Positions 8,643-12,249 of a stretch of 30,104 nucleotides of DNA are shown in pieces. This DNA is from a virus. The translations under genes were made by a program, and so were the position numbers. The number at the start of each line of letters is the position of its first letter. Position 1 is the stretch's first letter. Below the pieces are notes generated by a model. The model saw nothing but the letters and a program-made list of their open reading frames with translations. It had not been told where the DNA came from and did not search any database. The stretch is from positions 1 to 30,104 of the IMG/VR virus record IMGVR_UViG_3300004369_000627; one strand, given 5' to 3'.

Positions 8643-8911
8643 TGGTTTTAAACCCACTTGAAACATTTGAAGGTGCTGGCACATTGCTTGCAAAAATGGT
8701 AGCAAAAGGTCAATGTACCATTGAAGATTTAGATAAACCGCCAGCAGGCATGATCCCTGAAGCAAAATACACAAATCTTTTGCGTGATTGGATTTCTGTT
8801 AACCCACAAAAATGGAAAGAAATTTTAGATGAATACAACGTTTTACCTGAACCAGCAGTTGAAGCTGGGCCATCGCCACGCGATTTTCTAACAAACGAAC
8901 TGCCCTTCTGA
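8642..8911 (+). CDS. Small hypothetical protein
   Basis: An 89-residue acidic protein (MVLNPLETFEGAGTLLAKMV...). The middle is helical (KYTNLLRDWISVNPQKWKEI), followed by a Pro/Glu-rich linker and the C-terminal end PRDFLTNELPF. The acidic start of the tail and final LPF recall the C-terminal tip that SSB proteins use to recruit partners, but this is weak. One-base TAATG overlaps at both ends show coupled translation with its neighbours. Function not assigned. Confidence 0.7.
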   Translation: MVLNPLETFEGAGTLLAKMVAKGQCTIEDLDKPPAGMIPEAKYTNLLRDWISVNPQKWKEILDEYNVLPEPAVEAGPSPRDFLTNELPF

Positions 8912-9207
8912 TGCCACGTTTTTACAATCGCAAAGTTGAAATACGCTTTGAAGATTCTGCTATTGAACAAATTGACAAGGTTGCAGCAAAATCAAATCTC
9001 TCAAGAGCAGAATTTATACGCAATGCTGCTGTCAATGCTTTAGACGCTACGCCTCAGCCACAGGTGCCTACAAGCGCTACAAAGCCGGCTTTAACCGTGA
9101 GCGCTTATCACGCCCTAGTCCAGCATGTTTACCGCAGCATGGGGGGCTCTGTGGCCCGAATACAAGTCGAAACCTGTGTAGCGACAACATTGCAATATTT
9201 ATTTTAA
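8911..9207 (+). CDS. Ribbon-helix-helix DNA-binding protein (98 aa)
   Basis: The N-terminal ~45 residues form a CopG/Arc-type ribbon-helix-helix: strand RKVEIRFEDSAIEQIDKVAA, turn KSNLSRAEFIRNAAVNAL. A Pro/Thr-rich linker follows, then a C-terminal helical segment (ALTVSAYHALVQHVYRSMGG). The Ser-Arg-Ala-Glu-Phe-Ile-Arg turn is typical of RHH regulators. It is last in the replication unit, 39 bases before the modification cassette, and could regulate the promoter between them. The ATG overlaps the previous stop (TGATG). Confidence 0.8.
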   Translation: MPRFYNRKVEIRFEDSAIEQIDKVAAKSNLSRAEFIRNAAVNALDATPQPQVPTSATKPALTVSAYHALVQHVYRSMGGSVARIQVETCVATTLQYLF

Positions 9208-9246: not shown

Positions 9247-9750
9247 ATGCCATCAATCAACGATTTTAAAACAGACAGTAAAAATGCACGTAAAAGAACC
9301 AACCAATCGGCAACATTGATTCAAGAGTCACTTAAGAGATATGGCGCAGCACGTTCAATTGTTGTTGATGAAAATGGAGTAGTGCTTGCTGGCAATGGTA
9401 CCTTTGAAAGTGCAAAGTCTGCTGGTATTACAAAAGTCAGAGTAATCGAGAGCGATGGAACTGAATTGATTGCAGTTCGCAGAACTGATTTGTCTGACGA
9501 GGAAAAAGTAGGCCTTGCGCTTGCAGATAATAGAACATCAGAACTATCCTCATGGGATAATGAAATGCTTCATAGGTTGTCTATGGAGCATGATATATCC
9601 CCGTGGTTTGAGCAAGACGACATATCGGCATTAATAGATGACCCAACCGAAAAGATTGCGCCAGAAAATTTTGCTGAAGTTGGAGAAGACATTGCAATTG
9701 AATATCGCTGCCCATCCTGTGGATACGAATGGAGCGGAAAAACAAAATGA
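9247..9750 (+). CDS. ParB/Srx-like domain protein of the modification cassette
   Basis: A 167-residue protein with a ParB/sulfiredoxin-like fold. Residues 20-80 hold the core: LIQESLKRYGAARSIVVDEN, then GVVLAGNGTFESAKSAGITK (the GN-x-x-x-E-x-A nucleotide/DNA-binding motif). Then comes EEKVGLALADNRTSELSSWD, a stretch familiar from phage ParB domains fused to or next to DNA methyltransferases. The C terminus has CPSCGYEW, half of a zinc ribbon. No methyltransferase is fused here; separate enzymes follow. It may position the modification enzymes on DNA or act as a nucleotide switch. Its stop overlaps the next start (ATGA). The fold is confident, the role inferred from its neighbours. Confidence 0.82.
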   Translation: MPSINDFKTDSKNARKRTNQSATLIQESLKRYGAARSIVVDENGVVLAGNGTFESAKSAGITKVRVIESDGTELIAVRRTDLSDEEKVGLALADNRTSELSSWDNEMLHRLSMEHDISPWFEQDDISALIDDPTEKIAPENFAEVGEDIAIEYRCPSCGYEWSGKTK

Positions 9751-10550
9751 TTGGACCAGTTAGACCTACACTAAGAAGAATCATAGCGCCACTACCAAAA
9801 CAAATAGCGGTATCAATGTCTGGGGGCATTGACTCTTCTAGCGTAATTGTTGCGGCGCTTGACGAAGGTAAAGATGTAACCGTTTTTTCTTTTACTTTTG
9901 AAGACTTTGAATCAACGGATTTCAAAGCCGCTAAAAAAATAGCTCAAAAATATAAACTACCTTTTGTTGAAGTACTTTTACCGTCTTGCCCCGGCAAAAT
10001 ATATGAAACAATTCAAGTAATTATTCGTCAATGCAGAATAAAAAAAAAGACAGCAGTTGAATGTGTTTTCCCGTTCGTGTTTTTAATTGATAAAATATGC
10101 CAATTTGATTTTAAGTGTTTACTGACCGGGCATGCTGCAGACGGGCATTTTGGCGTTTCAAAAAAAGCAATGATGCACTTTCGAGAACCACTAAGCAAAT
10201 TTAACGAATTTCGGCAAGAGTATTTTTCAAACCCTAATAGCTCACAAGTTAAAACACTTAAAAGCTACTGCCTAACAAAAGGAATAAATTTATCTACTCC
10301 ATATTTTGAACCTGACATATTCGCACTTTTTATTAACAGACCATGGAATGAATTGAACAAACCACGACAAAAAGAAGCGATTAGAATTGAATTTCCTGAT
10401 TTAGATGATCTCGCAATCAAACCACATAGCAACCTGCAAATGGGGGATTCACGTATTGCGGAAAGAGTTGGAGCAGCCGCATTAATGCACTTGCCTAATG
10501 CAAAAAATCCTGTTGCAGTATACAATCGCATTTATAGCGGGCATCTATGA
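9747..10550 (+). CDS. Asparagine-synthetase-like PP-loop ATP pyrophosphatase
   Basis: A 267-residue enzyme of the adenine nucleotide alpha-hydrolase class. Residues 20-50 contain the PP-loop SMSGGIDSSSVIVAALDEG, and about 130-140 has LLTGHAADGHFG, which parallels the 'G-x-G-A/S-D-E-x-F-G' loop of asparagine synthetase. The N-terminal glutaminase domain of AsnB is absent, so ammonia or another amine would be taken directly. Such enzymes adenylate a carboxylate or carbonyl and replace AMP by nitrogen. With a cytosine methyltransferase and a CmoA-like enzyme downstream, amidation of a modified base is a reasonable inference. The ATG at 9747 (ATGA overlap, GGAG 12 bases upstream) is preferred over 9729. 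Confidence 0.8.
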   Translation: MIGPVRPTLRRIIAPLPKQIAVSMSGGIDSSSVIVAALDEGKDVTVFSFTFEDFESTDFKAAKKIAQKYKLPFVEVLLPSCPGKIYETIQVIIRQCRIKKKTAVECVFPFVFLIDKICQFDFKCLLTGHAADGHFGVSKKAMMHFREPLSKFNEFRQEYFSNPNSSQVKTLKSYCLTKGINLSTPYFEPDIFALFINRPWNELNKPRQKEAIRIEFPDLDDLAIKPHSNLQMGDSRIAERVGAAALMHLPNAKNPVAVYNRIYSGHL

Positions 10551-11599
10551 AGCCAGCCTATAAAGTGCCGTCAATGGAAGAAATTACGGCAATACCTTGG
10601 AATAGATACAAGGTTGCATCTACATTTTCCGGATGCGGCGGATCTTGTCTGGGTTACCGAATGGCTGGATTTAAAGTTGTATATGCGAATGAATTTATCC
10701 CGGAAGCTCAAGAAACCTACAAAGCAAACCATCCAAATAGTTTTCTTGATCCAAGGGATATTCGCACAATACAGCCATCCGAGATTCTCAGCGCAACAGG
10801 TATTGCCGCTGGTGAGCTTGATTTGCTAGACGGGTCACCCCCTTGCTCAGCTTTTTCTACCGCTGGCAAAAGAGAAGGCGGCTGGGGCGAAGTAAAAAAA
10901 TACAGCGACACCGAGCAACGAGTAGATGACCTATTTTTTGAATATGTACGCCTGCTCAAAGGATTGCAGCCCAAGGTATTTGTTGCAGAAAACGTAACCG
11001 GGTTGGTTAAAGGAACTGCAAAAGGATATTTTAAGACGATACTTGCAGCCATGAAAGAATCCGGCTACAACGTAACATGCCGCATTCTTAATTCATGTTG
11101 GCTTGGTGTCCCACAAGCAAGGCAACGTACTATCTTTGTAGGAACAAGAAATGACTTGCAAGTTATGCCAGTTCATCCAGAGCCACTTCCATATTGCTAC
11201 ACAATTAGAGATTGTCTGGAAGGTGTATCAGGGGATAGTTTGTTTAGGCCGTTAACTCCTGGCACAAGACTACATGACTATTGGGAAGCATCAAAGCCTG
11301 GCGACCAGTTCAATAAAATCTCAAAAAAACGCAGAGGTGTTGATGCTTTTTATTCGCACATTAAAATGTCACCAGCGCGGCAAGCAAATACGATTACGCA
11401 GGTTTGCGCTATGTATCATTGGAATGAACCACGAAGCCTTACGATTGCAGAATTAAAAAGAGTTAGCGGGTTTCCGGATGACTTTATCTTTACCGGATCA
11501 TTTAGCAAGCAATGGGAAAGAATTGGTAGAGCTGTACCACCTGTAATGATGTCGCACGTAGCCTCTACAATACGCTCAAAGATATTGGACCTCATATGA
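10547..11599 (+). CDS. C5-cytosine DNA methyltransferase-like enzyme with Arg in motif X
   Basis: A 350-residue enzyme with the ordered C5-methyltransferase motifs: I (FSGCGGSCLGYRMAGF, SAM binding), IV (GSPPCSAFSTAGKRE, with the catalytic Cys), VI (AENV), VIII (PQARQRTIFVG), IX and X. The target-recognition region lies at about 225-300. Motif X reads RIGRAVPPVMM, where the family usually has G-N-x-V; the Asn is replaced by Arg. As I recall, changing the equivalent Asn in M.MpeI to a basic residue lets it use carboxy-SAM. It overlaps both neighbours by 4 bases. It could be an ordinary 5-methylcytosine enzyme, but the CmoA-like and PP-loop neighbours argue for a larger modification. No restriction endonuclease is nearby, so it probably protects phage DNA. 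Confidence 0.93.
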   Translation: MKPAYKVPSMEEITAIPWNRYKVASTFSGCGGSCLGYRMAGFKVVYANEFIPEAQETYKANHPNSFLDPRDIRTIQPSEILSATGIAAGELDLLDGSPPCSAFSTAGKREGGWGEVKKYSDTEQRVDDLFFEYVRLLKGLQPKVFVAENVTGLVKGTAKGYFKTILAAMKESGYNVTCRILNSCWLGVPQARQRTIFVGTRNDLQVMPVHPEPLPYCYTIRDCLEGVSGDSLFRPLTPGTRLHDYWEASKPGDQFNKISKKRRGVDAFYSHIKMSPARQANTITQVCAMYHWNEPRSLTIAELKRVSGFPDDFIFTGSFSKQWERIGRAVPPVMMSHVASTIRSKILDLI

Positions 11600-12249
11600 A
11601 AATCCCACGCAATTGGACATTCGAAACTGAAGAAGTAGCTAACGGTTTTGACAAGCATGTTAGAGAACAGTTGCCATGGTACGATCTTGCTACTGATGCC
11701 TTAAAACATATAGCTAGGCATTACATACCTCAAGATGGTATTGTTTACGATATCGGAGCATCTACTGGCAATATCGGACGAGCATTGGCACCTGTGATTC
11801 AAGCAAGAAATGCAAAACTAATTGCTATTGAACCATCAAAGGAAATGTGCAAAATTTACAATGCACCAGGCGAGGTCTTTTGTTCTAAAGCAGAAGATTT
11901 TGACTTTGATGCGTTTGACCTTGCGGTATTATTTCTTTGCCTTATGTTTATTGAACCTAGAAAAAGAATACAGCTTATGAATAAGTTGCGTCTAAATTGT
12001 CGCCCTGGCGGCGCTATTATTGTATTTGATAAACTTGAACCCAGAGGAGGATATATTTCAACAATTTTATATCGCCTTACACTGGCTGGCAAAAAAGCTG
12101 CTAATGTATCAGCAGAAGAAATTATTGAGAAAGAGTTGTCTTTGTCAGGTGTGCAACGACCAATTACTGAAGAACAACTTGGAGGCAGTTTTGTGAACTG
12201 GTTCAGGTTTGGCGATTTCTCTGGTTACATTATTGAGAGACCTGCTTAA
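11596..12249 (+). CDS. CmoA-like class I SAM-dependent enzyme
   Basis: A 217-residue protein resembling CmoA, which converts SAM and prephenate to carboxy-SAM. Shared features by eye: RNWTFETEEVANGFDKHVRE near the start (CmoA has WTFDERVAEVF), the SAM motif VYDIGASTGNIG (CmoA VYDLGCSLGAA), LIAIEPSKEM, then FLCLMFIEPRKR and RPGGAIIVFDKLEP, and NWFRFGDFSGYI near the end (CmoA LWFQCFNFGSL). The CmoA arginine contacting the carboxylate is not obvious at the aligned position, so carboxy-SAM synthesis is unproven; it may be another methyltransferase. It is the last gene of the coupled cassette (ATGA overlap at 11596). Confidence 0.75.
   Translation: MKIPRNWTFETEEVANGFDKHVREQLPWYDLATDALKHIARHYIPQDGIVYDIGASTGNIGRALAPVIQARNAKLIAIEPSKEMCKIYNAPGEVFCSKAEDFDFDAFDLAVLFLCLMFIEPRKRIQLMNKLRLNCRPGGAIIVFDKLEPRGGYISTILYRLTLAGKKAANVSAEEIIEKELSLSGVQRPITEEQLGGSFVNWFRFGDFSGYIIERPA

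What the first reader, a model, noticed from the sequence alone, without database searches (positions are those of the whole stretch)
9247..12249. Four-gene cassette that may install a carboxymethyl- or carbamoylmethyl-cytosine in phage DNA
Seen: a ParB/Srx-like protein, an asparagine-synthetase-type PP-loop enzyme without glutaminase domain, a C5-cytosine methyltransferase and a CmoA-like protein, joined by ATGA overlaps. Known: CmoA makes carboxy-SAM from SAM and prephenate; asparagine synthetase turns a carboxylate into an amide; C5 enzymes can be altered to accept carboxy-SAM. Inference: the CmoA-like enzyme supplies carboxy-SAM, the C5 enzyme makes 5-carboxymethylcytosine, and the PP-loop enzyme amidates it to 5-carbamoylmethylcytosine; the ParB-like protein targets DNA or gates the reaction. 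Such a cytosine pathway would be new to my knowledge and would protect against host restriction.
Basis: partly seen in the sequence, partly recalled or inferred. Interest (0 to 1): 0.88.

Follow-up and report, generated by a model that had tools for sequence, protein, structure and literature searches.

The report
Phage CmoA–CmoX–CmoY cytosine hypermodification cassette
Four neighbouring phage genes very likely attach a carboxymethyl group to cytosines in the phage's DNA and then cap it, probably with glycine; this pathway was published in December 2025, so the locus is a new member of a known system, notable mainly because close sister phages carry a different capping enzyme in its place.

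Summary
Four overlapping ORFs at 9247-12249 encode a ParB/Srx-like protein, an asparagine-synthetase-type PP-loop ligase without glutaminase domain, a C5-cytosine methyltransferase and a CmoA homologue.
The carboxymethylcytosine reading is right but no longer new. Yang et al. (PMC12783734, Dec 2025) showed it biochemically in Synechococcus phage S-B43: CmoA makes Cx-SAM, CmoX makes 5-carboxymethylcytosine, CmoY adds glycine.
The window's MTase matches CmoX (8YF3, E 5e-74) far better than any other structure. It has the diagnostic Arg (R328) where HhaI has Asn304. Across my loci that residue is Arg in 122 of 124 scorable MTases with CmoA nearby, and Asn/Met in 55 of 59 with neither CmoA nor CmoY nearby.
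The last step should be corrected: this ligase is the short, glutaminase-free SpCmoY type, so glycine (5gcxmC) is more likely than ammonia. Sister phages (CmoA 97%, ParB 89% identical) carry instead a 487-aa glutaminase-bearing ligase at another position, with a diverged target-recognition region. They are the better candidates for carbamoylmethylcytosine.
The ParB-like protein also accompanies related MTases without CmoA, so it probably serves the methyltransferase.
No chemistry was tested here; amine and target sequence remain inferred.

The parts
9247..9750 (+). ParB/Srx-like protein, 167 aa, with C-terminal CPxCG motif (C155/C158, codons at 9709-9711 and 9718-9720)
   Evidence: phrog_620 3.8e-26; C155 and C158 invariant in 45 aligned relatives
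9747..10550 (+). CmoY-like ATP-dependent amide ligase, 267 aa, PP-loop SGGIDSS at residues 25-31, no glutaminase domain
   Evidence: Pfam Asn_synthase 4.1e-12; 35% identical to the CmoY of Synechococcus phage RB11-B; AF2 model pLDDT 93.6, best PDB folds carbapenam, asparagine and beta-lactam synthetases
10547..11599 (+). CmoX-like DNA cytosine C5-carboxymethyltransferase, 350 aa
   Evidence: 8yf3 (SpCmoX) E 5.2e-74 against 5.6e-30 for the next PDB hit, M.HaeIII; Pfam 2.8e-61
10844..10846 (+). codon of C100 (SPPC motif), aligned with SpCmoX catalytic Cys98 and HhaI Cys81
   Evidence: alignment
11528..11530 (+). codon of R328, aligned with SpCmoX R350 (Cx-SAM carboxylate contact), HhaI N304 and the engineered M.MpeI position N374
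   Evidence: alignment; role from PMC12783734
11596..12249 (+). CmoA-like carboxy-SAM synthase, 217 aa, phage subtype (H21, E180, R188)
   Evidence: TIGR00740 2.1e-19; AF2 model TM 0.84 to E. coli CmoA 4gek, the best hit in PDB; residue pattern

Best explanation
A CmoA-CmoX-CmoY DNA hypermodification cassette. (1) The CmoA homologue makes carboxy-SAM from SAM and host prephenate. (2) The CmoX homologue flips out a cytosine at its recognition site, attacks C6 with Cys100 and transfers the carboxymethyl group to C5; Arg328 holds the carboxylate. The product is 5-carboxymethylcytosine. (3) The CmoY homologue adenylates that carboxylate with ATP and joins it to an amine, most likely glycine, giving 5-glycylcarboxymethylcytosine. 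(4) The ParB/Srx-like protein with its CPxCG tail is an accessory of the methyltransferase, perhaps in DNA loading or targeting. The modified DNA resists host restriction enzymes. Steps 1-3 were shown experimentally in S-B43 and are inferred here from homology, residues and gene order. Glycine is an inference from ligase type. The ParB role is a guess.
For: Biochemistry of the homologous system, including a CmoX crystal structure, R350N loss of activity and 5gcxmC in native phage DNA (PMC12783734). CmoX is by far the best PDB match of the window MTase. R328 sits at the Cx-SAM position, and Arg there tracks CmoA: 122 R, 2 G, 1 unscored with CmoA in the locus; 48 N, 7 M, 4 R, 1 unscored with neither CmoA nor CmoY. 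Three of those 4 R cases lie at contig ends. MTases L030, L125 and L126 group among the R-type enzymes but have Asn and no CmoA (their exact placement has low support). CmoA fold confirmed, and the window CmoA has the same H/E/basic pattern as the S-B43-type CmoA. The ligase shares SpCmoY features (KKTxxECxFPF, ADGxxGVSKKA, ELNKPxQK) and lacks a glutaminase domain.
Against: No DNA chemistry was measured. The CmoA lacks Arg199 and Asn132 of E. coli CmoA and is shortened near the C-terminus; the S-B43-type enzyme also lacks both residues. The ligase is only about 35% identical to SpCmoY, and the paper says some ligase clusters have other active-site residues and unknown amines. The residue set that binds glycine is in a supplement I could not read. 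The record is 30 kb and may be incomplete.
Confidence: 0.85

Rival explanations
1. Same first two steps, but the ligase adds ammonia, giving 5-carbamoylmethylcytosine.
For: The ligase has the asparagine synthetase fold; free ammonia could serve without a glutaminase domain.
Against: The characterised short ligase uses glycine. Glutaminase-bearing ligases exist in sister phages and differ from short ones at many otherwise conserved positions, e.g. window C106, G133, K139, H227.
Confidence: 0.12
2. Same first two steps, but the ligase adds another amine (another amino acid or a polyamine), a hypermodified base not yet described.
For: PMC12783734 reports ligase clusters with distinct active-site residues and states that the glycine-type pocket might accept other alpha-amino acids.
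Against: The window shares most short-type signature residues with SpCmoY.
Confidence: 0.2
3. An ordinary cytosine-5 methyltransferase with unrelated neighbours.
For: Pfam C5 family membership.
Against: R328; near-perfect association with CmoA; wild-type SpCmoX accepts only Cx-SAM.
Confidence: 0.04
4. The ParB/Srx-like protein is an enzyme of the carboxymethyl or amide chemistry.
For: It lies in the same operon in most ParB-type loci.
Against: It also lies beside N-type (L030, L125, L126) and M-type (L148-L152, L155) MTases with no CmoA or CmoY, and is absent from the S-B43-type locus (L004).
Confidence: 0.08

Closest known systems
CmoA/CmoX/CmoY system of Synechococcus phage S-B43 (PMC12783734)
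   Same: Same three enzymes as neighbours; Arg at the HhaI N304 position; glutaminase-free ligase; CmoA with His at E. coli M31 and Glu at R199 (seen in RB11-B, a phage of the same host with S-B43-type genes).
   Different: Gene order here ParB-CmoY-CmoX-CmoA, there CmoA-CmoY-CmoX; ParB added here; target-recognition region only about 8-12% identical over residues 226-275; host unknown.
Moraxella phage Mcat8 (KR093632)
   Same: ParB-CmoX-CmoA order next to the terminase; CmoA 55%, CmoX 46% identical.
   Different: No ligase, so 5-carboxymethylcytosine would be the end product.
Pseudomonas phage PaBG (KF147891)
   Same: ParB, CmoX, CmoA and short ligase together.
   Different: CmoA of the E. 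coli subtype (R199 kept); different order.
Engineered carboxymethyltransferase M.MpeI N374K (cited in PMC12783734)
   Same: Basic residue at the same cofactor-site position.
   Different: Engineered, CG-specific, no ligase.
Bacterial CmoA/CmoB tRNA cmo5U pathway
   Same: Source of Cx-SAM.
   Different: Targets tRNA uridine; no CmoB was seen among the cassette genes.

Membership tests
CmoX (DNA C5-carboxymethyltransferase) | C5-MTase fold with SPPC motif | tested here: met
   Pfam 2.8e-61; S97-P98-P99-C100
CmoX (DNA C5-carboxymethyltransferase) | Arg at SpCmoX R350 / HhaI N304 | tested here: met
   R328
CmoX (DNA C5-carboxymethyltransferase) | Makes 5cxmC from Cx-SAM and not 5mC from SAM | not testable with these tools
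   needs an assay
CmoA (Cx-SAM synthase) | CmoA fold and sequence family | tested here: met
   TIGR00740 2.1e-19, below its curated cut-off; 4gek TM 0.84
CmoA (Cx-SAM synthase) | E. coli Arg199 | tested here: not met
   E180 in the window; also Glu in the S-B43-type CmoA, whose S-B43 homologue is proven active, so not required for the phage subtype
CmoY (short, glycine-type ligase) | AsnS-type PP-loop domain without glutaminase domain, next to CmoX | tested here: met
CmoY (short, glycine-type ligase) | Glycine-carboxylate-binding residues of the SpCmoY cluster | tested here: inconclusive
   Short-type signature residues shared, but the published residue list is in a supplement I could not read
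Glutaminase-type ligase (ammonia; A0A7T0Q3R0 cluster) | N-terminal glutamine amidotransferase domain | tested here: not met
   No GATase hit in the window ligase; present in L022, L017, L076, L050, L123, L034, L012
ParB/Srx superfamily | Sequence similarity to phage ParB-like families | tested here: met
   phrog_620 3.8e-26; no Pfam hit

The most novel reading that the evidence does not exclude
The capping step of the pathway is an exchangeable module: nearly identical phages swap a glycine-type ligase for a glutamine-amidotransferase-type ligase, together with a changed MTase target-recognition region, so that the same phage lineage carries different hypermodified bases (5gcxmC here, 5-carbamoylmethylcytosine in the sisters), probably to outrun modification-dependent host defences.
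Probability: 0.45. Interest if true: 0.55.

Novelty: new member of a known kind. Interest (0 to 1): 0.36.

Why it matters
It confirms by independent residue and neighbourhood evidence that the newly published carboxymethylcytosine pathway is spread among unrelated phages, and it identifies sister phages that differ in the last enzyme. That pair would show directly whether ammonia and glycine ligases make different DNA bases and whether the change alters sensitivity to host restriction. The short and glutaminase-bearing ligases could also be useful for enzymatic DNA labelling.

Tried and rejected
Novelty of the pathway was rejected after finding PMC12783734. E. coli Arg199 as a test of CmoA function was rejected because the S-B43-type CmoA lacks it. 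ParB as a chemical enzyme of the pathway is disfavoured. Several CmoX copies per Verrucomicrobia genome turned out, in the one locus read, to lie among phage genes, and the copies share long flanks: probably related prophages, not a new bacterial system. A search for relatives of the Staphylococcus F1 ligase in viral contigs found none. A literature search for CmoA Arg199 papers found none. The predicted models came without coordinates, so ligand pockets could not be inspected. The target sequence of the window CmoX could not be predicted: its recognition region is too diverged.

Full report
Observation. The window is an IMG/VR virus record of 30,104 bases. At 9247-12249 four + strand genes overlap by ATGA: a ParB/Srx-like protein (phrog_620, 3.8e-26), a PP-loop ligase (Pfam Asn_synthase 4.1e-12, no glutaminase domain), a C5-cytosine MTase (2.8e-61) and a CmoA homologue (TIGR00740 2.1e-19, below the curated cut-off; phrog_4752 3.6e-50).

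Known system. A literature search found the same pathway already demonstrated: PMC12783734, Nat Commun, 7 December 2025. In Synechococcus phage S-B43, CmoA makes Cx-SAM, CmoX makes 5-carboxymethylcytosine (structure 8YF3; R350 binds the carboxylate; wild type accepts only Cx-SAM), and CmoY, an asparagine-synthetase-like ligase without glutaminase domain, attaches glycine. The product 5gcxmC was found in native phage DNA. The authors searched IMG/VR among other sources, found 5,615 CmoX candidates and noted frequent ParBc and glutaminase-bearing ligase neighbours. The window may be among their 5,615; I could not check.

The MTase is a CmoX. Its best PDB match is 8yf3 at E 5.2e-74; the next is M.HaeIII at 5.6e-30. 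Cys100 aligns with the catalytic Cys and R328 with SpCmoX R350 and HhaI N304. I tested the Arg against gene context in loci gathered by patterns that do not include this position (scored). With CmoA present: 122 R, 2 G, 1 unscored. With neither CmoA nor CmoY: 48 N, 7 M, 4 R, 1 unscored; three of the four R cases (L039, L122, L143) lie at contig ends. These counts are not independent because of shared ancestry. However, MTases L030, L125 and L126 fall among the R-type enzymes in the tree while having Asn and no CmoA (placement poorly supported), and the two G-type enzymes belong to a separate Staphylococcus lineage.

CmoA. The AF2 model (pLDDT 91.9) has E. coli CmoA as its closest PDB fold, TM 0.84. 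In 129 CmoA sequences from these loci I saw a switch in residues. 114 have His at E. coli Met31; these almost always lack Arg199, and 106 of them have Arg or Lys at E. coli Leu207. The 15 with Met mostly keep Arg199 or have Lys and have Val or Leu at 207. The window (H21, E180, R188) is of the His type. So is the S-B43-type CmoA, whose S-B43 homologue has proven activity. That the basic residue at 207 replaces Arg199 is my inference.

Ligase. The AF2 model (pLDDT 93.6) matches carbapenam, asparagine and beta-lactam synthetases. It is 35% identical to the CmoY of RB11-B and shares short-type signatures that the glutaminase-bearing ligases lack. Glycine is therefore the best guess, ammonia less likely.

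Ligase exchange between sisters. L022, L107 and L108 share with the window CmoA at 97%, ParB at 89% (L022 and L107) and flanking DNA at 81-88%. They lack the short ligase between ParB and CmoX. Instead a 487-aa ligase whose start reads MCGIAGAF (seen in L107) and which has GATase and Asn_synthase domains (tested in L022) lies between CmoX and CmoA. CmoX is 60% identical overall but only about 20% over residues 226-250. L109 shows the same arrangement. L014, L013 and L015 carry the short type. So the capping enzyme and target region vary within an otherwise conserved cassette. I did not see this described in the parts of the paper that I read (parts 1-3 of 8, which hold the abstract, results and discussion).

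ParB. Across 45 aligned relatives the C-terminal CPxCG cysteines are invariant. The protein also sits beside MTases of N and M type without CmoA, and is missing from the S-B43-type locus. It probably serves the MTase. Two cysteines per chain could bind zinc across a dimer; this is untested.

Verdict. A real and well-supported CmoA-CmoX-CmoY cassette; a new member of a known kind.

Noticed in passing
L002 5257-7775 (Staphylococcus phage vB-SscS-F1) and L006 5989-7688 (SPbeta-like): MTases next to CmoA (and, in F1, a short ligase) have Gly instead of Arg at the HhaI N304 position, whereas the related MTase of phage Perkons, whose 9-kb neighbourhood shows no annotated CmoA, has Asn. Possibly a second, Arg-free way to use Cx-SAM that an R350 filter would miss.
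   Followed up: partly
L202 79-2271 (Erwinia phage Y3, record 30466-32088 region): A CmoX-like MTase is split by an intein-like insert exactly at the catalytic Cys of SPPC (GSPPC...VVHNCKGFS), with Arg kept at the Cx-SAM position; it lies about 16 kb from that phage's CmoA and ligase genes.
   Followed up: partly
L128-L141, L147 (Verrucomicrobia genomes): Several diverged ParB-CmoX-CmoA copies per genome; in L140 they lie among phage genes (DNA polymerase, terminase-like and portal-like ORFs), so probably several related prophages in one host.
   Followed up: partly
L146 (Chloroflexi NAT137): CmoX with Arg and a short ligase but no CmoA detected within about 8 kb on either side.
   Followed up: no
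L148-L152, L155: ParB-linked SPPC-type MTases with Met at the HhaI N304 position (CGMSVPP) and no CmoA; their cofactor use is unclear.
   Followed up: no
window 8911-9207: Ribbon-helix-helix (CopG-like) small protein just upstream of the cassette, a possible regulator.
   Followed up: no
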